NCBI GenBank assembly: GCA_016183815.1
Contig: JACPDW010000007.1
Location: forward strand, 1 to 64,000
DNA length: 64,000 nucleotides
Source of the DNA: Flavobacteriia bacterium
Lineage (GTDB): Bacteria; Bacteroidota; Bacteroidia; Flavobacteriales_D; Crocinitomicaceae
Direction of reading: 5' to 3'
Position numbers and translations under genes: made by a program. The notes under the pieces are model-generated. The model was not told where the DNA came from. It saw only the letters and a list, made by a program, of their open reading frames with translations, and searched no databases. Shown here in pieces: positions 4,662 through 21,247 of the stretch. Positions within the stretch are counted from its first letter, which is position 1. Each line of letters begins with the position of its first letter.

Positions 4662-4669
4662 TATATTTG
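4662..4669 (+). promoter_or_regulatory. Candidate -7 box (TATATTTG) for the hybrid-kinase operon
   Basis: The sequence matches the Bacteroidota housekeeping -7 consensus TAnnTTTG and ends 10 bases before the ATG at 4680. No clear -33 TTTG is visible. The predicted transcript would have a very short leader. Confidence 0.5.
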
Positions 4670-4679
4670 TTTATCCAAA

Positions 4680-6767
4680 ATGCGAAAAATGAAAAATAAA
4701 ACGGATAAAAAAATAAAAGATTTAAGAATTATATTACTTGTTTTTGCAGTAATAACACCGTTATCTTATTATTTAAGAACCAACATAGAGACTTTTGATC
4801 CATTATGGATAAAAATGTTATTCGGAGTTACCTACGTGCTGTTTTTTATAGGAACTTTTTTTGTTAAGTTTATTAAGAAATACCATTATTTAATTTCAAT
4901 TTTTTTAATTTATTCAATAATAATTTATCAATTTTATTTAATACTTATAAACAATTTTGAAAAGTCATTCACTGGTGGATATATTTTCTTTTCATTTTTA
5001 GCAATTCTCTATTTAAGGACATATTTTTCGATGTTCTTTTTTTCAATTATTTCTTTTTTAACATTACTTATCTTATATATTGTATATAAAAACGATACAG
5101 AATTACTCACTTTTGGTCACGTACGTTCAATAATAATAATGAATGGTCTATCAACCATTATCAGGTATTATGGAATTAGAAAAGAATTAAAGTTGAATAA
5201 GTATTCTATTGATTTAGAGGCAAGTGAAGAGAAATTTAAAAATTTACTTGAATTTGCACCTGATGCAATAATATCAACAGATTCAAACGGAATAATTAAA
5301 GAGATAAATAAAAAAGGGGTATTATTATTTAATAAAAAAATTGAAAACATTATATCTAAAAACATCACTTTATTTATTTCTAATCAAATGTTTGAGAATA
5401 AATTATTTTTTAATGAATTAAAAAATAATTTGAGTGAAAACAAAATTATTCCATTAAGTAATGTCTATTATGCCATAGTAGAAAATAATATTTTTATCCC
5501 AATAGAATTGAGTTTTGGAGTTATTGAAGTAGAAAATAAAGAAAAAAATTACATAACAATTTTCAGAGATATAACCCCAAGAATAGATGCTGAGAAAGAA
5601 TTAAATGAAATGAGATTTAAATTACAACAAAAAGAGATTTCAGAAAAAATTTCATTAGCTAAATCAGAGTTTATTTCAAAAATGAGTCACGAAATAAGAA
5701 CGCCATTAAATAGTATTTATGGTTTTACAAACATACTTTTAAAGGAGAAAATTAACAATAATCAAAAAAAATATGTTGAAACAATTAAGTTTTCAAGTGA
5801 ATTACTTTCATTGTTAATTAATGATATTTTAGATAATGCAAATCTTGAAACAGGCAATATATCATTAGAAGAAAACGAAATTGATATTAATTTACTAATT
5901 TACAATGTTGCGGAAAGTTTTAATATTAAATTAAATGAAAAAAAATTAAAATTAAACATAAAATATTCCGAAGAAATAATAAATCAACTTTACAGTCCAA
6001 TTGGTGATAAATTAAGAATAAGTCAGATAATAATGAATTTATTATCCAATTCAATAAAATTCAGCCACGAGGAAGGGAATATTGATTTAATCATAAATTT
6101 TGAAGAATATGAGACTTCAAAGTTGAAATTACAAATTATTGTTAAAGATTATGGAATTGGAATACCTGAAGAAAAAATTAAAGACATTTTTCATCCATAT
6201 GTCCAAGTTAGTAATGAGATATCAAAAAAATATGGAGGAAACGGACTGGGTTTAAGCATTGTAAAAAATTTAATTGATAAAATGGGTGGAAGCATTTCAG
6301 TTGAATCTAATGGTTGTACTATTTTTAAAGTAGAATTAATTTTAAGAAAAGAAGCTAAAGTTAAAAATTCAAATACTCAACCAAACAATGAATTTTCCAG
6401 ATTAAAAAACATAAAGATATTAATAGTTGAAGACAATTTAATGAATCAATTTTTACTTCAGACAATTTTAGACAATTATTCAATTAAGTATGATATAGCA
6501 GAAAATGGAAAAGTTGCCTTGCAATTCTTAGAGAATAAAAGATACGATTTAATATTAATGGATTTAATGATGCCAGAAATGGATGGTTTTACATGCACTA
6601 AAATAATTAAAAAGGAACTTAAATTAGATTGTAAAATAATTGCTTTAACTGCTGATATTAAGTCCATACTTGAAAAAGAAAAACAAGAATTATTTGACGG
6701 GTACTTAAAAAAACCTTTTGAAGAAGAGGATTTGTTAAATTCAATAATTAAATTCAATTATAAATAA
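4680..6767 (+). CDS. Membrane hybrid histidine kinase (PAS-HisKA-HATPase-REC)
   Basis: 695 residues. About six hydrophobic helices form an N-terminal membrane sensor region (residues 15-165) with no large periplasmic loop. A PAS domain follows (about 183-300), then a short coiled segment and HisKA with phospho-acceptor His337 (SHEIRTPLN). The HATPase has an N box (IIMNLLSNSIKFS), an intact G1 box (DYGIGI, Asp490) and a G2 box (GGNGLGLSI). A C-terminal receiver carries Asp628 (LILMDLMMPEMDG) and the conserved KP at 678-679. Phosphate should pass from His337 to Asp628 and then to an HPt protein; a candidate HPt is encoded at 10114-10467. It is the first gene of a set with a paralogous kinase two bases downstream and a LytTR regulator. 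The signal sensed is unknown. Confidence 0.92.
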   Translation: MRKMKNKTDKKIKDLRIILLVFAVITPLSYYLRTNIETFDPLWIKMLFGVTYVLFFIGTFFVKFIKKYHYLISIFLIYSIIIYQFYLILINNFEKSFTGGYIFFSFLAILYLRTYFSMFFFSIISFLTLLILYIVYKNDTELLTFGHVRSIIIMNGLSTIIRYYGIRKELKLNKYSIDLEASEEKFKNLLEFAPDAIISTDSNGIIKEINKKGVLLFNKKIENIISKNITLFISNQMFENKLFFNELKNNLSENKIIPLSNVYYAIVENNIFIPIELSFGVIEVENKEKNYITIFRDITPRIDAEKELNEMRFKLQQKEISEKISLAKSEFISKMSHEIRTPLNSIYGFTNILLKEKINNNQKKYVETIKFSSELLSLLINDILDNANLETGNISLEENEIDINLLIYNVAESFNIKLNEKKLKLNIKYSEEIINQLYSPIGDKLRISQIIMNLLSNSIKFSHEEGNIDLIINFEEYETSKLKLQIIVKDYGIGIPEEKIKDIFHPYVQVSNEISKKYGGNGLGLSIVKNLIDKMGGSISVESNGCTIFKVELILRKEAKVKNSNTQPNNEFSRLKNIKILIVEDNLMNQFLLQTILDNYSIKYDIAENGKVALQFLENKRYDLILMDLMMPEMDGFTCTKIIKKELKLDCKIIALTADIKSILEKEKQELFDGYLKKPFEEEDLLNSIIKFNYK

Positions 6768-15120: not shown

Positions 15121-15333
15121 TCAAGAATTTAGCTTTGTCATTAAATCTTCGTGGTTTTTAGTATGAATTAAACCAATTCCCTTTTCAACATTTTCTATTG
15201 CTTGAAAAGTTTCTTTATTTGGAAAACGCAAAACTTCAACGCCTTTTTTTTCAGTAGAGCTCAATTTTATCAAATCTAAAATGATTTTTCCCATTTTAGA
15301 TCGTTCATTTATTTTTAAGGTTATTGTTGTCAT
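15121..15333 (-). CDS. Small antitoxin-like protein, partner toxin absent
   Basis: I take the start at ATG 15333 (MTTITLKINERSKMGK...), giving 70 residues. A longer frame from 15441 adds a Phe/Asn-rich head that looks non-coding and spans an inverted repeat. The N-terminal beta strand with TITLKIN, a following helix (KIILDLIK) and an acidic C-terminal part resemble short type II antitoxins found beside RelE-like toxins in Bacteroidota. No toxin gene is adjacent: downstream there is no ORF, and upstream is the HigBA pair. A frameshifted copy of its first half lies at 16668-16863, and the ATG-proximal 30 bases are nearly identical between the two. Function is inferred; no domain is confirmed. 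Confidence 0.55.
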   Translation of the reverse strand: MTTITLKINERSKMGKIILDLIKLSSTEKKGVEVLRFPNKETFQAIENVEKGIGLIHTKNHEDLMTKLNS

Positions 15334-15445
15334 GAGTTCTGTTTTAACAAGGTTAAAAAAAATTTTGAAATTAAAAAATCGATTGAAATTAGCGTGAAAG
15401 TTTCTTATGGGATAAAAATTATCGTTTTTCATGAAATACATATGC

Positions 15446-15462
15446 CAGGATTACAAATCCTG
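15446..15462. repeat. Short palindrome, REP-like
   Basis: CAGGATT ACA AATCCTG is a perfect 7-bp inverted repeat with a 3-base loop, followed by GAAGAGCGGGAG. Short GGATTTGTAATCC-type palindromes with GC-rich flanks are typical of REP sequences associated with IS200-like (RAYT) transposases in Bacteroidota. Only one copy was noticed here, so this is suggestive only. Confidence 0.35.
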
Positions 15463-15488
15463 AAGAGCGGGAGAAATATTAGACCTTT

Positions 15489-15809
15489 TTAAATATCAAA
15501 ACTCACTCTTAATTGTCTTCCAAAACCTTCACGAATAATGCGCATCAAAGTAGATAGACGAATATCGCTTGCGTGGTTTTCAATCTTAGAAATATAAGTT
15601 TTTGTTGTACCACATTTGATAGCCAACTGCTCTTGAGTCATACCTTGTTCCTTACGAAGCTCATGAATCATGACACCTAATTTGAATGATTCAAAACCTT
15701 CCTCATATTGCTTACGTGTTTCAGCACCTTTTTTACCGTATTGTGCATCTAAATGGTCTGAAAATGTAGTGATATTTTTATTTATACTCATAATTTCTTT
15801 ATTTTTCAT
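15489..15809 (-). CDS. higA: HigA-type antitoxin, XRE-family helix-turn-helix protein
   Basis: 106 residues. The C-terminal half is a Cro/C1-type helix-turn-helix (about 48-100): IHELRKEQGMTQEQLAIKCG, then TKTYISKIENHASDIRLSTL. The N-terminal half, with KKGAETRKQYEEGFESF, is the linker typical of XRE antitoxins that neutralise a RelE/HigB toxin. Its start overlaps the end of the toxin gene by 11 bases (toxin first, as in other higBA pairs), so the two are translationally coupled. The protein probably also represses the pair's own promoter. An internal start (MSINKN, six codons in) is possible. Confidence 0.88.
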   Translation of the reverse strand: MKNKEIMSINKNITTFSDHLDAQYGKKGAETRKQYEEGFESFKLGVMIHELRKEQGMTQEQLAIKCGTTKTYISKIENHASDIRLSTLMRIIREGFGRQLRVSFDI

Positions 15810-16143
15810 TAAAATATGCTTTTTTTATTTTTTCTGCCAATTCAATTTCTTTTTTCGGAGTTTTGTTTGTCTTTTTCTGAAATCCATTTACTAAAACGAC
15901 CAATTTTCCTTTATCAAAAAAACTAAAAACTCGATAAATACTTGAACCAACTTCAACCCTAATCTCGTAAATACCATCAGTTCCAGTAATGTGCTTGAAA
16001 TATTTCTCAGGAACTCGATCAATGGTAGCAATTAACTGTAACGTCCAGTTGAATTTATTCTTAACTTCGGGTTTTAGAGTTTCAAAAAAATCTAAATAAT
16101 AATGTTTGTAATAGACAATGCTCCTCTTGAAATTTCCTTCCAC
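15799..16143 (-). CDS. higB: HigB/RelE-type toxin
   Basis: 114 residues. It matches the phage-derived Gp49-like/HigB group of the RelE superfamily: a helical start, VPEKYFKHITGTDGIYEIRVE, then SSIYRVFSFFDKGKLVVLVNGFQKKTNKTPKKEIELAEK. The block YRVFSFFDKGKLVVLVNGF(Q)KK is the usual signature, and its basic residues contact mRNA in the ribosomal A site. Such toxins cleave mRNA during translation. It precedes and overlaps the XRE antitoxin gene. It appears intact. Upstream (16144-16318) no other gene is seen. Confidence 0.88.
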   Translation of the reverse strand: MEGNFKRSIVYYKHYYLDFFETLKPEVKNKFNWTLQLIATIDRVPEKYFKHITGTDGIYEIRVEVGSSIYRVFSFFDKGKLVVLVNGFQKKTNKTPKKEIELAEKIKKAYFNEK

Positions 16144-16318
16144 AATACAAAGTTAGCTAATTAGATAACAATTTGCAAGTTTTTGGACTATTTTTTTTAG
16201 AGTTTTACAAAAATATATGTACTTTTTGTTAAGAATTGCAAATTTTACAACATTATGAATTCGTCTCAATGATTGAATTATCTGCAACAGGATTATTAAT
16301 TCAACTGAGCGGTTCATC

Positions 16319-16624
16319 CTATTCAAATAATCTTAAATTTCTATTAGGTAGATATAACATATAAAAGAAAATAAAAAATAAATATAATAGAATAAACACA
16401 AAAATTTTCAATTTTATTTTTAGATTTATTGTATTGATAGTAAATGAGACAATCAAAAATAATGGAACAATAATAAAAAATTCAAGATATGTATTTGTGA
16501 TGTCTGGCACGAAGTTTTCATGTGATTTATTAGTTGGTAAACACATTTCTATCAAAATAATAAAGATTCCTATAAAAATAATTGAAATTATATTGAAAAT
16601 GTTATTTTGTTTCATAAAAAGCAT
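16319..16624 (-). CDS. Small three-helix membrane protein of unknown function
   Basis: 101 residues (98 if the second ATG at 16615 is used, which gives the cleaner start MKQNNIF). Three hydrophobic helices: about residues 9-27, 47-65 and 72-92. The loop after helix 1 contains CLPTNKSHENFVPDITN. No family recognised. It lies within the toxin-antitoxin cluster, transcribed in the same direction as its neighbours but 175 bases or more from the toxin gene. It could be a small membrane toxin or a stray hypothetical; nothing in the sequence decides. Confidence 0.5.
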   Translation of the reverse strand: MLFMKQNNIFNIISIIFIGIFIILIEMCLPTNKSHENFVPDITNTYLEFFIIVPLFLIVSFTINTINLKIKLKIFVFILLYLFFIFFYMLYLPNRNLRLFE

Positions 16625-16667
16625 GAAAAATTAAATTAAAACAAAAATAAGGATTGTGGTTTGTATT

Positions 16668-16863
16668 TCAAAGGAATTTACCGTTTTCACGAAGTAAAAT
16701 TAACACTTCTTCAAGTAAAGAAATATTTAAGCCTCTAAAGTTTTCTCATTTGGCACATATAATACCTCAACTCCTTTTTTTTCAGAAGAGCTCAATTTTA
16801 TCAAATCTAAAATGATTTTTCCCATTTAGATCGTTCATTAATTTTTAAGGTTATTGTTGTCAT
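16668..16863 (-). pseudogene. Frameshifted copy of the 15121-15333 antitoxin gene
   Basis: From ATG 16863 the frame reads MTTITLKINERSK, identical to the intact gene, then loses one A in the run before the next Met codon and meets a stop a few codons later. Correcting the shift gives SSSEKKGVEVLYVPNEKTL, clearly parallel to SSTEKKGVEVLRFPNKETF. After another shift the frame continues as LNISLLEEVLILLRENG to a TGA at 16668-16670. The DNA of the first 90 bases is almost identical to the intact gene, so the duplication looks recent compared with the decay of its 3' half. Confidence 0.8.
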
Positions 16864-16968
16864 AAAACATCATTTAATACAAATTTACAAAAAATAGTTT
16901 TAAGAAATACAAAATCGTAATTCTCTCAAAAATCAAAGTCTAAAAAACCAAAAATTTTAAAATCCAAA

Positions 16969-17079
16969 CTACATATTCCTCCTATACTCTACCCTCCAAC
17001 CTCAAATAGCGCATTAGTAATCTCTCCTAAGGATGAATATTTACACGTTTCCATCAATTGTTCAAACAAATTTTTGTTT
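16969..17079 (-). repeat. Decayed duplicate of the icmF 3' end
   Basis: About 110 bases match 17869-17976, the last 35 or so codons of icmF, in the same orientation, at roughly 80-85% by eye. A run of more than 35 bases (GAATATTTACACGTTTCCAT and onwards) is identical. A 2-base insertion near the 3' end shifts the frame and creates an early stop (EVGG*). It lies just downstream of the MNT gene, so the HEPN-MNT cassette sits between the real icmF end and this copy. It is not expressed as part of any intact gene. Confidence 0.85.
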
Positions 17080-17110
17080 AATAAAGTAACAAATATTACT
17101 TTCAGAAAAA

Positions 17111-17416
17111 CTAATTCTTATCATAAAAAACTAATCCAACCCTTCCAATTTGTTCTTCCAAATCAGGTGAATTAAGTTTATCAAAAATAGAAATATCAAA
17201 TAAATAAGGTGTGTTTAAATCGTCTATTTCTTGGTTTATTTTAGATAATAATGTGTATGAAAGTTCATTTCCTTTTAAAGTAATGTCTATGTCTGAGCCT
17301 TCTCGGTAAGTTCCTTTCGCTCGCGAACCATAAATAATCACTTGTTCTACTTCAGGATGATTTTCAAAAACTGAGTTTATTTTAGTGATGGTATCTTCTG
17401 TTAAACCAAATTTCAT
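17111..17416 (-). CDS. mntA: MNT-type minimal nucleotidyltransferase (antitoxin)
   Basis: 101 residues. Minimal nucleotidyltransferase with the GS-x10-DxD signature: GSRAKGTYREGSDIDI (Gly30, Ser31, Asp42, Asp44), and a third acidic residue at Asp74 (YLFDISIFD). In known HEPN-MNT pairs the MNT protein is the antitoxin, transferring AMP to a tyrosine of the HEPN toxin. Its start overlaps the stop of the HEPN gene by four bases (ATGA), showing translational coupling. The catalytic residues all appear present. The family also includes HI0073-like proteins whose role was first described only as substrate-linked nucleotidyltransfer. Confidence 0.88.
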   Translation of the reverse strand: MKFGLTEDTITKINSVFENHPEVEQVIIYGSRAKGTYREGSDIDITLKGNELSYTLLSKINQEIDDLNTPYLFDISIFDKLNSPDLEEQIGRVGLVFYDKN

Positions 17417-17817
17417 TGTAAGGTCTTCATTTTAGTACAAAAAGACTGGAACAATGGATAATAATTTGAAACAATTTTTTCAAATTCTTCTTCTAAAATA
17501 TTTTGATGGTAGGTGTGTACTGTTTTGTTTCTACTTTCAATCATATCTATCCAAACTTGACCATCAGAAATCAAACCTTTATTAAAAGCTTCTTTTGTAG
17601 CACTTTTAGAGCCAAATACATTTTTAATACCTTCTTCTTCCAAGAAATCTTTCATCACATTCCAAGCTAATTCATGCGTAAACTCAAAACGTTGTATAAT
17701 TCCTTCTTTGATTAGGTCGTTTTCCGTATCAGCATATAATTCGACGGCATCTCTTAAATGAGATAGTGCTTTTTCATAATTTGAAAATCGTTGTTTCCAT
17801 CTAATATCTTGTTCCAT
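17413..17817 (-). CDS. hepT: HEPN-domain protein, HI0074-family (toxin partner of MNT)
   Basis: 134 residues, all helical, HI0074 nucleotidyltransferase-substrate-binding family. It carries the HEPN RNase motif RX4HXY as RNKTVHTY (Arg96, His101, Tyr103). In characterised HepT toxins Arg and His form the RNase site, and the Tyr two residues after the His is modified by the MNT partner. Other family marks are FEFTHELAWNVMKDFLEEEG (44-63) and SKSATKEAF. It lies 49 bases after icmF on the same strand and overlaps the MNT gene. The pair is flanked by the icmF 3' end and a decayed copy of it, which suggests arrival as a cassette. Confidence 0.88.
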   Translation of the reverse strand: MEQDIRWKQRFSNYEKALSHLRDAVELYADTENDLIKEGIIQRFEFTHELAWNVMKDFLEEEGIKNVFGSKSATKEAFNKGLISDGQVWIDMIESRNKTVHTYHQNILEEEFEKIVSNYYPLFQSFCTKMKTLQ

Positions 17818-17866
17818 AATAAAAAATTATTATCCTCTTCTCAACTCATTGGAATAAATTTAAAAC

Positions 17867-20800
17867 CTACATATTCCTTCTATACTGTCCTCCAACCTCA
17901 AATAAAGCCTTCGTAATCTCACCCAAAGAAGAATATTTACACGTTTCCATCAATTGTTCAAACATGTTTTTGTTTTGAATGGCAGCCATTTGTACGTTTT
18001 TAATACCTGCTTTTGCTTGTTCGCCGTTTGCTTTATGCAAGTTGGCTAACATTTCAATTTGGTATTGTTTTTCTTCTTCGGTAGCACGAATCACTTCTTT
18101 AGGAAGAACAGTTGGCGAACCTTTTGAACTCAAGAAAGTATTTACACCAATGATTGGAAATTCACCCGTGTGTTTCAAGGTTTCGTAATACAAGGATTCT
18201 TCTTGAATTTTTGAACGTTGGTACATAGTTTCCATTGCACCTAAAACGCCTCCACGTTCGGTGATACGGTCAAATTCAGAAAGTACGGCTTCTTCCACTA
18301 AATCGGTCAATTCTTCAATGATGAATGAACCTTGTAACGGATTTTCGTTTTTCGCTAAACCTAATTCACGATTGATAATCAATTGAATTGCCATGGCACG
18401 TCTTACAGATTCTTCCGTTGGAGTCGTAATTGCCTCATCGTATGCGTTCGTATGTAGCGAGTTACAGTTGTCATAAATTGCGTAAAGAGCTTGTAAAGTA
18501 GTACGAATATCGTTGAAATCAATTTCTTGTGCGTGTAAGGAACGACCAGATGTTTGAATATGGTATTTCAACATTTGTGCACGCGGATTGGCTCCATATT
18601 TTTTTGCCATGGCTTTTGCCCAGATTCTTCTCGCCACACGTCCGATGACCGCATATTCAGGGTCGATTCCGTTAGAGAAAAAGAACGATAAATTTGGACC
18701 AAAATCGTTGATGCTCATTCCTCTGCTCATGTAGTATTCCACGTAGGTGAAACCGTTTGCCAAGGTAAATGCTAACTGTGAAATTGGGTTTGCACCTGCT
18801 TCTGCAATATGATAACCAGAAATTGAAACAGAATAAAAGTTACGCACACCATTATTGATGAAATATTGTTGAACATCTCCCATTAAACGCAAGGCAAATT
18901 CTGTGGAGAAAATACAGGTATTTTGTGCCTGATCTTCTTTTAAAATATCTGCTTGTACCGTTCCACGAACTTGCGTTAGGGTTTCTGCTTTTATTTTATT
19001 GTAAACCTCTGCAGGAAGCACTTGGTCGCCCGTTACGCCTAATAACATCAAACCTAAACCGTCGTTTCCTTCAGGTAAATCGCCTTGGAAAGCTGGACGG
19101 TTAACTCCTTTTTGCTTGTAAATAGCAGAAATTTTAGCCTCTATTTCCTTTTCTAAGCCATTTGCTTTGATGTATTTTTCACAATTTTGGTCAATCGCTG
19201 CATTCATGAAAAAGCCTAACAACATTGGTGCAGGACCGTTAATTGTCATGGAAACCGAAGTCATCGGATGCGATAAATCGAAACCAGAGTATAATTTTTT
19301 AGCATCATCCAAACAACAAATCGAAACTCCAGAGTTGCCTATTTTACCGTAAATATCTGGACGCAAATCTGGATCATTTCCGTATAGAGTTACCGAGTCA
19401 AAAGCGGTTGAAAGTCTTTTCGCAGGCATTCCCAAACTTACATAATGGAAACGTTTGTTGGTGCGCTCGGAACCTCCTTCACCGGCAAACATCCTTGTTG
19501 GATCTTCACCTTCACGTTTGAATGGGAATAAACCAGAAGTGTAGGGGAATTCTCCTGGTACATTTTCTTGTAAACTCCAACGTAAAATATCGCCCCAAGA
19601 AGTGTATTTTGGTGTGGCTACTTTCGGAATTTGAAGATGTGAAAGCGACTCAGTGTGTGTGTCTAATTTTAATACTTTATCACGTACTTTGAACTCAAAC
19701 GTTGGGTTTTTATATAAAGCTTTTTTCTCCTCCCATTTTTGTAGTACATCCCAGTTTTTTGGGTCGAAGTTTAATTTTTCGGTTTCAAAAGTTTCTTGTA
19801 ATACTTTAATCAAACGGTCTTTATCATCGATTGTAGAGTTTTTCAAAGTCTCCATCGAAGAATGTAAACCTTGCAAACGATTCGCAACTTCGACTTGCTG
19901 ATTCACCCATTTATCAAATGAGCGATTGTTTTCAGAAATTTCAGATAAATAACGTGTTCTATCCGGTGGAATCACAAAAATTTTCTCCGACATTTCCTGT
20001 GTTATTTCAAAAGTAGAATGCAAATTTGCCCCTGTTTTTTGAACGATTTTATCCATAATCACTTTGTAAAGTGAATTCATTCCGGGGTCGTTGAACTGAG
20101 AAGCAATTGTACCATAAACAGGCATCGAATCAACAGGTTCATCAAATAAATTATGGTTGCGTTGGTATTGTTTACGAACATCACGTAACGCATCTAAAGC
20201 ACCCCGTTTGTCAAATTTATTTAATGCAATCACGTCGGCAAAATCCAACATGTCGATTTTTTCTAATTGGGTTGCAGCTCCGTATTCTGGCGTCATGACG
20301 TACAAAGAAACATCTGAGTGATCTAAAATTTCTGTATCAGATTGTCCGATTCCCGACGTTTCCAAAATGATTAAATCGTATTCAGCTGCTTTTAAGACGT
20401 TAATCGCTTCAGCAACGTGTTTGGACAAAGCCAAATTGGATTGACGAGTTGCTAAGGAACGCATGTAAACTCGTGAATTTTTAATCGAATTCATACGAAT
20501 TCGGTCACCTAGTAATGCACCACCCGTTTTACGTTTCGAAGGATCCACAGACACCACAGCGATTTGTTTTTCCTTGAAATCAATTAAAAAACGACGAACT
20601 AATTCATCTACTAACGAAGATTTTCCAGCTCCTCCAGTTCCTGTAATACCTAATACTGGCACAGAAACTTCTTTTGCCATTTTTTGTACTTCATCCAATA
20701 CTGATTTCGAAGAATCAGCAAAATTTTCAGCAGCAGAAATAATTCTTGCAATAGAAGGAACGTTTTTCTTTTTAATGTTTTTGATTTCTTCGTTTAGATT

Positions 20801-21247
20801 TTGACCAACAGGGAAATCCGCTTTTTGAACCAAATCGTTTATCATTCCTTGTAAACCCATCGAACGACCATCGTCTGGATGATAAATTCGTGTAATACCG
20901 TATGCTTGTAATTCTTCAATTTCAGAAGGTAAAATCGTACCACCACCGCCAGCAAAAATCTTGATTTGTGGGGCTCCTTTTTCCTTCAATAAATCATACA
21001 TGTATTTTAAGTATTCCGTGTGACCTCCTTGGTAAGACGTCATTGCAATCGCTTGGGCGTCTTCCTGAATTGCACAATTCACTACTTCCTCTACTGAGCG
21101 GTCGTGACCTAAATGAATTACTTCACATCCAGTCGCTTGAATAATTCTACGCATAATATTGATAGCAGCATCGTGTCCATCAAATAGTGAAGCTGCGGTA
21201 ACGATTCGAACGTTATTGATTGGTTTGTATGGTTCTATTTTGTCCAT
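17867..21247 (-). CDS. icmF: Fused isobutyryl-CoA mutase with GTPase chaperone
   Basis: 1126 residues. B12-dependent enzyme interconverting isobutyryl-CoA and n-butyryl-CoA, with its own G-protein chaperone. In order: cobalamin-binding domain (about 10-145) with [11 protein letters not shown], where His25 is the lower cobalt ligand; MeaB-like GTPase (about 165-420) with Walker A GTGGAGKS (203-210) and NKFD; a linker; and the mutase TIM barrel (about 550-1126). IcmF rather than methylmalonyl-CoA mutase is indicated by Phe in YTSGLFPF, where MCM has the active-site Tyr, and by Gln in AQNTCIF, where MCM has the carboxylate-binding Arg. Its neighbours paaG and paaH are divergent and also serve acyl-CoA metabolism. 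The last 35 codons are duplicated at 16969-17079. Confidence 0.96.

What the first reader, a model, noticed from the sequence alone, without database searches (positions are those of the whole stretch)
16969..17976. HEPN-MNT toxin-antitoxin cassette inserted at the icmF 3' end with duplication of that end
The last 35 codons of icmF are repeated, frameshifted, just beyond the MNT gene, in the same orientation. Everything between the two copies is the HEPN-MNT pair. This is what results when a cassette carrying a copy of a gene's 3' end integrates there, the element's copy restoring the gene and the displaced original decaying. No integrase is present, so the mechanism is open (homologous recombination or mobilisation in trans). 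Use of a metabolic protein-coding gene instead of a tRNA as the site is notable.
Basis: partly seen in the sequence, partly recalled or inferred. Interest (0 to 1): 0.65.

Follow-up and report, generated by a model that had tools for sequence, protein, structure and literature searches.

The report
Toxin pair spliced behind metabolic gene
A small toxin-antitoxin gene pair sits just behind a metabolic gene in a Bacteroidota bacterium, with a broken leftover copy of that gene's last 35 codons on its far side, which suggests that the pair arrived together with a foreign copy of the gene's end and pushed the old end downstream.

Summary
The icmF 3' end (codons ~1092-stop) is repeated at 16966-17079, 89% identical over 87 nt, frameshifted (+2). 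Only a HEPN-MNT pair lies between the copies.

A congener, G004, has the site without the cassette: icmF runs directly into a small TA pair. The window's distal copy continues into a decayed version of that flank (score 47.5, shuffles 13.4±2.5); the intact copy does not (16.5, shuffles 12.3±2.2). By position the distal copy is the displaced original.

In 29 in-frame codons the copies differ by 9 synonymous and 2 non-synonymous changes; neutral decay of an identical duplicate predicts ~2 synonymous of 11 (P=5e-5). They diverged mostly as working alleles, so the tail was probably imported with the cassette rather than copied from the target. One-sided homologous recombination with an illegitimate second joint fits best; this is inferred.

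The 22 other HEPN-bearing family genomes have it away from icmF. No integrase lies in the window.

Verdict: real, probably a single event; a new variant of known module-capture patterns.

The parts
17867..21247 (-). icmF, fused isobutyryl-CoA mutase/GTPase, intact (1126 aa); anchor gene
   Evidence: NF045497 1760 bits over cut-off 1500
17864..17975 (-). intact copy of the icmF 3' end (codons ~1092 to stop); inferred to have come in with the cassette
17413..17817 (-). HEPN toxin gene (HI0074/PF08780 family; RX4HXY motif as RNKTVHTY)
17111..17416 (-). MNT antitoxin gene (Pol-beta nucleotidyltransferase; GSX10DXD motif), overlaps HEPN by 4 nt
16966..17079 (-). displaced, frameshifted copy of the icmF 3' end (2-base insertion, stop)
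16655..16965 (-). ancestral flank of icmF: spacer plus decayed antitoxin (start codon near 16863) and, read by eye, a scrap of its toxin near 16655-16695; 16726-16965 aligns with the flank directly behind icmF in G004
15489..16143 (-). neighbouring RelE/Gp49-type toxin (15799-16143) and HTH antitoxin (15489-15809), HigBA-like; part of the TA cluster, not of the insertion
15121..15441 (-). orphan antitoxin-like gene, 82% identical over 182 columns to the decayed antitoxin; no toxin gene follows

Best explanation
A HEPN-MNT toxin-antitoxin pair entered by horizontal transfer on a DNA piece that also held the 3' end of a related icmF allele. One side recombined homologously inside icmF, so the gene kept its reading frame but now ends in the donor's codons. 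The other side was joined without extended homology inside the resident icmF tail, about 35 codons before its stop. The resident tail and the old TA pair behind it were pushed downstream, where they decay. In function the pair is most likely an ordinary type VII TA: HEPN is an RNase, and MNT silences it by adding AMP to the tyrosine of RX4HXY. Shown: the repeat, the empty site, the flank continuity, the synonymous pattern, the motifs. Inferred: the donor, the one-sided recombination, the TA activity.
For: Distal copy plus flank aligns without a break to G004 icmF plus flank (272 of 364 columns identical). Flank alone: distal 47.5 vs shuffles 13.4±2.5, intact copy's flank 16.5 vs 12.3±2.2. 9 synonymous: 2 non-synonymous differences over 29 in-frame codons, P=5e-5 under neutral decay from an identical copy; taking only changes that I assigned by hand to the distal copy, 4 of 5 synonymous, P=0.013. 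The distal copy's distance to G004 (16/87, 18%) fits the icmF body (16.5%); the intact tail is closer (10/87, 11.5%). No integrase in the window. A ComEC-type uptake gene is in the genome (it also rings in 10 of 14 control genomes). The same outcome (new module in, old 3' end and old immunity genes pushed back) is described for Vibrio T6SS modules, where homology-facilitated illegitimate recombination is proposed (PMC5361080, passages).
Against: No donor with HEPN-MNT behind icmF was found: 22 of 22 other HEPN-bearing family genomes have it on another contig; the icmF contigs of G018 and G074 end ~0.3 kb past the gene. No clean recombination breakpoint inside icmF: relatives are distant (~17% nt), and the local shift towards G002 at codons ~1045-1091 could be a fast-evolving linker. 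The raw allele distance makes the intact copy the more G004-like one, and it is the closer copy in 69 of 108 relatives, the distal in 23, with 16 ties. Only 87 in-frame nt carry the synonymous test.
Confidence: 0.62

Rival explanations
1. Single-crossover (Campbell) insertion of a circular molecule that carried an icmF tail and HEPN-MNT; the repeat start is then the edge of the tail on the circle.
For: Gives the same gene order and the same displaced tail; a 34-nt identical run in the repeat could hold the crossover (P=0.03 by shuffling positions).
Against: The homology is only ~113 nt at 89%; only the two TA genes lie between the copies; plasmid and phage hits to HEPN are all under 60% identity (100 and 4 records).
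Confidence: 0.14
2. A site-specific integrative element that uses the icmF 3' end as attachment site, the integrase lost or acting in trans.
For: Tail restored by the element, identical run of 34 nt, frame kept: the usual picture for elements at gene 3' ends (recalled). The genome has 7 tyrosine-recombinase matches elsewhere.
Against: No recombinase in the window; no recombinase signature in 114 icmF records (weak test, the signature was found in only 3 of 7 Pfam-detected recombinase loci); no second cassette-sized insertion with tail repeat in 107 other icmF records.
Confidence: 0.1
3. Insertion with long target duplication as described for restriction-modification modules: the target is copied on insertion and the two copies start identical.
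For: Module type, lack of integrase and repeat length (order of 100 bp) match that description (PMC3874152 passage); an R-M cassette in Mycoplasma hominis near a gene 3' end has a 202-bp duplication (PMC12376442 passage).
Against: Identical copies followed by decay of the distal one predict mostly non-synonymous differences; observed 9 of 11 synonymous (P=5e-5).
Confidence: 0.08
4. Local tandem duplication of the icmF tail unrelated to the HEPN-MNT arrival, the cassette landing between the copies later.
For: One relative (G018, L010) has a short 28-bp tail repeat without a cassette.
Against: Needs two events; the divergence pattern argues against identical copies.
Confidence: 0.06

Closest known systems
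HEPN-MNT type VII toxin-antitoxin (HepT-MntA; HI0074 family; solved L. pneumophila pair 8xdj/8xeh)
   Same: Adjacent genes with 4-nt overlap, RX4HXY and GSX10DXD motifs, strong match to the solved pair (HEPN E=1.3e-40, MNT 3.1e-23; motifs as given in PMC11586414, passages)
   Different: Below NCBIfam's HepT and MntA cut-offs (23.1 and 39.5 of 60 bits) but over the HI0074 cut-off (105.3 of 55.8); activity untested
T6SS effector-immunity module displacement in Vibrio cholerae (homology-facilitated illegitimate recombination proposed, PMC5361080)
   Same: New toxin module anchored by upstream homology; old 3' end and old antidote gene shifted downstream (passages)
   Different: There the anchor is the region upstream of the module within a T6SS cluster; here it is an unrelated metabolic gene and the module is an intracellular TA
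Restriction-modification insertion with long target duplication (Nobusato et al. 2000; not seen itself, cited in passages of PMC3874152, PMC3031569, PMC1643837)
   Same: Selfish module, direct repeats of the order of 100 bp, no integrase
   Different: Here the copies differ mostly at synonymous sites, so at least one came from elsewhere
Integrative elements at the 3' end of protein-coding genes (recalled)
   Same: Gene end restored by the incoming copy
   Different: No recombinase in the window, no recurrence seen at the site

Membership tests
HEPN-MNT type VII TA | HEPN protein with RX4HXY | tested here: met
   RNKTVHTY in the ORF at 17413-17817; PF08780 145 bits; 8xdj 1.3e-40
HEPN-MNT type VII TA | Adjacent MNT with GSX10DXD | tested here: met
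   GSRAKGTYREGSDID in 17111-17416; PF18765, PF01909; 8xeh
HEPN-MNT type VII TA | Score over NCBIfam HepT and MntA cut-offs | tested here: not met
   23.1 and 39.5 bits of 60; HI0074 subfamily cut-off met (105.3 of 55.8). These are cut-offs of narrow models, so I call the pair HEPN-MNT, not HepT-MntA
HEPN-MNT type VII TA | RNase toxicity neutralised by AMPylation | not testable with these tools
   bench assay needed
Insertion with long target duplication | Empty site in a relative | tested here: met
   G004
Insertion with long target duplication | Copies arise from one target, so divergence is neutral decay | tested here: not met
   9 of 11 differences synonymous, P=5e-5
Homology-facilitated illegitimate recombination | Displaced resident end and old flank behind the new module | tested here: met
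Homology-facilitated illegitimate recombination | Far joint without extended homology | tested here: inconclusive
   Homology between the copies stops at codon ~1092; the donor side of the joint is unknown
Homology-facilitated illegitimate recombination | Donor-like tract in the anchor gene upstream of the repeat | tested here: inconclusive
   G002-ward shift at codons ~1045-1091 but relatives too distant
Integrative element at a gene 3' end | Integrase encoded by the element | tested here: not met
   No PF00589 match in C13:1-64000
Integrative element at a gene 3' end | Same site used by other elements | tested here: not met
   0 of 107 other icmF records with a tail repeat around a cassette; 3 of the 108 have under 300 bp of flank

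The most novel reading that the evidence does not exclude
Conserved metabolic genes serve as homology anchors for capture of TA modules, one TA replacing another behind the same gene, with the gene's last codons swapped each time; some of the 'long target duplications' reported around selfish modules would then be imported tails rather than target copies. A possible second trace is the sister pair G001/G004: only G004 has a TA pair behind icmF, and their icmF tails differ by 14% against 5% in the body.
Probability: 0.25. Interest if true: 0.6.

Novelty: new variant of a known kind. Interest (0 to 1): 0.42.

Why it matters
TA pairs move a great deal, yet the way a bare two-gene pair without a recombinase gets into a chromosome is seldom visible. 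Here the scar is still readable, and a codon-level test separates an imported gene end from a duplicated target. The same test can be run on published long target duplications around restriction-modification and TA modules.

Tried and rejected
Cassette boundary repeat elsewhere in the genome: a 30-nt match at C19:210017 (E=4.4e-4) lies in what looks like coding sequence and was dropped as chance. A general rule that HEPN-MNT loci carry gene-end duplications: 44 other fetched places, 42 with usable flanks (L073 and L207/L189 too short); not all HEPN places listed were fetched. Twelve of the 42 have short or weak repeats across the pair (29-131 nt). In three of them a copy touches the end of an open frame: L089 (30 nt, 90%, simple TTATGA-type sequence at both edges), L204 (55 nt, dispersed) and L082 (32 nt, 78%). 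None is like the window's 123 columns. icmF as a general hotspot for TA: none of 177 downstream ORFs of 106 records matched seven TA seed proteins by phmmer (no positive control was run, and G004 was not in this set). Contigs of G011 and L143 end at icmF codon 1092-1093, the repeat start; the two G011 contigs overlap there by 20 nt and were taken as an assembly break, while no partner was found for L143. Vehicle: no close HEPN in plasmids, phages or viral contigs. Mosaic test on icmF: no clear breakpoint. Promoter and terminator scan and Rfam: nothing beyond chance. Literature: no paper of the held library joins 'toxin-antitoxin' with 'homology-facilitated illegitimate recombination' (0 papers); five join it with 'long target duplication', of which I saw passages of three (PMC3874152, PMC3031569, PMC2654758) and two as listing only. 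'isobutyryl-CoA mutase' with 'integration site' gave two papers that I judged unrelated from the listing. PMC2884548 (passages) did not help.

Full report
What is there. The window lies on contig C13 of a 3.24-Mb genome. I take the family to be Crocinitomicaceae, an inference from record titles. icmF (17867-21247, minus strand) is intact and scores over the NCBIfam IcmF cut-off. Behind it, on the same strand, come HEPN (17413-17817) and MNT (17111-17416), then a second copy of the icmF end at 16966-17079. The repeat runs from codon ~1092 to the stop codon. The distal copy has a 2-base insertion and a stop near its end.

The pair is a HEPN-MNT module. HEPN matches PF08780 and, among solved structures, the Legionella pneumophila HEPN toxin (E=1.3e-40); MNT matches its partner (3.1e-23). 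The ORFs hold RX4HXY (RNKTVHTY) and GSX10DXD (GSRAKGTYREGSDID), the motifs given as RNase and nucleotide-transfer sites in PMC11586414 (passages). NCBIfam's HepT and MntA models are matched below their cut-offs, the HI0074 model above it. Activity is not shown.

The empty site. In G004, a congener, icmF runs directly into a small antitoxin gene and a YafQ/RelE-looking toxin gene (naming by eye). The window's distal tail, the spacer behind it and a decayed antitoxin align with G004 over 364 columns at 75% without a break. Restricted to sequence behind the stop codon, the distal flank scores 47.5 against G004 (300 letter shuffles: mean 13.4, sd 2.5, max 22.5) and the intact copy's flank 16.5 (mean 12.3, sd 2.2, max 19.5). 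Against G001 and G002 neither flank exceeds the largest shuffle; the G002 stretch used still held the last codons of its icmF. So the distal copy stands where the icmF end stood in the common ancestor with G004, and HEPN-MNT together with the intact tail is the addition.

Imported tail or copied target. In the 29 codons before the frameshift the copies differ at 11 bases, 9 of them synonymous. Putting 11 random substitutions on the intact copy gives 2.2 synonymous on average, and 9 or more in 1 of 20,000 runs (P=5e-5). Using only changes that I assigned to the distal copy by hand, by plurality among four relatives, 4 of 5 are synonymous (P=0.013). If the copies had been identical at insertion, the distal one should have gained about four non-synonymous changes for each synonymous one. 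They therefore diverged mainly while both encoded a working protein, and the frameshift is late. This separates the case from insertion with target duplication.

Over 87 nt the intact copy differs from G004 at 10 and the distal copy at 16 sites; from G001 at 15 and 16. Of 108 relatives compared, the intact copy is closer in 69, the distal one in 23, with 16 ties. Taken alone this speaks for the intact copy as the normal allele. But the icmF body (codons 489-1030) differs from G004 by 16.5%, which fits the distal copy (18%) better than the intact one (11.5%), and the distal copy may also have taken on decay. The site number is too small to decide.

How special is it. HEPN was found in 23 of 240 family genomes and in 40 of 399 genomes drawn from the order. 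In all 22 other HEPN-bearing family genomes the icmF tail lies on another contig; in G018 and G074 that contig ends ~0.3 kb past icmF. The tail itself was found in 217 of 240. Order genomes outside the family were not checked for this. Among 108 icmF records with a full frame (the window's own included; 3 with under 300 bp of flank; some contigs held twice, judging by length, e.g. L005/L110 and L027/L122), only the window has HEPN-MNT behind icmF, apart from a 24-residue MNT-like match 2.7 kb away in L129. Other repeats of the icmF end: 28 bp in L010 (G018) around what I read as a stem-loop, and in L127 a 52-nt, 73% match to an inner stretch that looks like chance. Of 44 other HEPN places fetched, 42 have usable flanks; 12 of these show short or weak repeats across the pair and three touch a frame end, but none is like the window's. 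In 145 sequences, 1.68 Mb, two repeats touched a gene 3' end, the window's and one among dispersed repeats in L204; L214 was skipped for its many repeats. In about 0.4 Mb more of this genome there was none. So this looks like a single event, not a habit of HEPN-MNT or of icmF.

The closest congeneric HEPN-MNT pairs (71-72% identical, G001 and G004) sit with an HTH gene upstream of methylmalonyl-CoA mutase genes, without a flanking duplication. At that distance they are not the immediate donor.

Mechanism. The order icmF-new tail-new module-old tail-old module is what one-sided homologous recombination with an illegitimate second joint leaves. The T6SS literature describes the same layering for effector-immunity modules and proposes that process (PMC5361080, passages). 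The process is reported from three naturally competent species and from E. coli conjugation (start of the abstract of PMC3240628 in the listing). The genome has a ComEC-type gene, which is common and proves little. A single crossover with a circle, or an integrase acting in trans, cannot be excluded; there is no recombinase in the window, though 7 matches lie elsewhere in the genome.

Possible second trace. G001 and G004 differ at 5.3% in the icmF body (G004 covers 640 codons) but at 15 of 105 nt in the last 35 codons (permutation P=0.0008 for that window, 0.086 for any window). This is the highest tail/body ratio among 26 listings of close pairs, in which this pair appears twice. G004 has a TA pair behind icmF; G001 has no match to the window's TA proteins there. 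It fits tail exchange with TA gain or loss, but is weak.

Other TA material. Behind the decayed antitoxin lie a RelE/HTH pair and an orphan antitoxin 82% identical to the decayed one, so TA modules seem to have piled up here as old immunity genes do in T6SS arrays.

Noticed in passing
G000:C27:1-7500 (L255); also C13:164497-164940, C43:91576-91959 and other places: Array of same-strand genes (299-, 482- and 411-aa proteins, a HigBA-like TA pair, a 273-aa protein) separated by ~170-420-bp direct repeats outside the large frames; one end of the repeat holds a strong hairpin. Two units have unit-specific complementary ends (GTTATGCCC/GGGCATAAC and GTTAACTGCA/TGCAGTTAAC), as integron cassettes do; two other units do not. 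26 matches in the genome, several at contig ends; in 60 family genomes also G017 (4 matches) and G107 (7), with single weak ones in three more. It looks like an integron-type array with unusually long repeats. A frameshifted recombinase with sub-cut-off XerD and integron-integrase similarity lies at C18:923-2062. An earlier count said none in G001-4; G001 was in fact not in that search.
   Followed up: partly
window 15121-16917: Second direct repeat: antitoxin-like sequence at 15206-15381 and 16737-16917 (82%) around a RelE/HTH pair and a 101-aa ORF; perhaps an earlier TA layer with an orphan antitoxin left over.
   Followed up: partly
L083 (G004) and L005 (G001), last 35 icmF codons: Sister genomes differ far more in the icmF tail than in the body, and only G004 has a TA pair behind icmF.
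   Followed up: partly
L010 (G018), 39-66 bp after the icmF stop: The last 28 bp of icmF are repeated once around what reads as a stem-loop, and the contig ends 0.27 kb downstream.
   Followed up: partly
L088 (G001:C11:1-8000): HTH-HEPN-MNT sits next to methylmalonyl-CoA mutase genes; a 401-aa gene that looks like a DUF1016-type nuclease (naming by eye) lies between the two subunit genes, which adjoin directly in the own genome, G002 and G003.
   Followed up: partly
L014, L115, L109 (icmF downstream): A 90-123-aa four-helix-bundle-like ORF (23S rRNA intervening-sequence protein type by eye) lies just behind icmF in several relatives.
   Followed up: no
L089 (G084:C3), 4667-4696 and 5846-5875: A 30-nt, 90% direct repeat of simple TTATGA-type sequence sits at both edges of a HEPN-HEPN-MNT unit.
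   Followed up: partly
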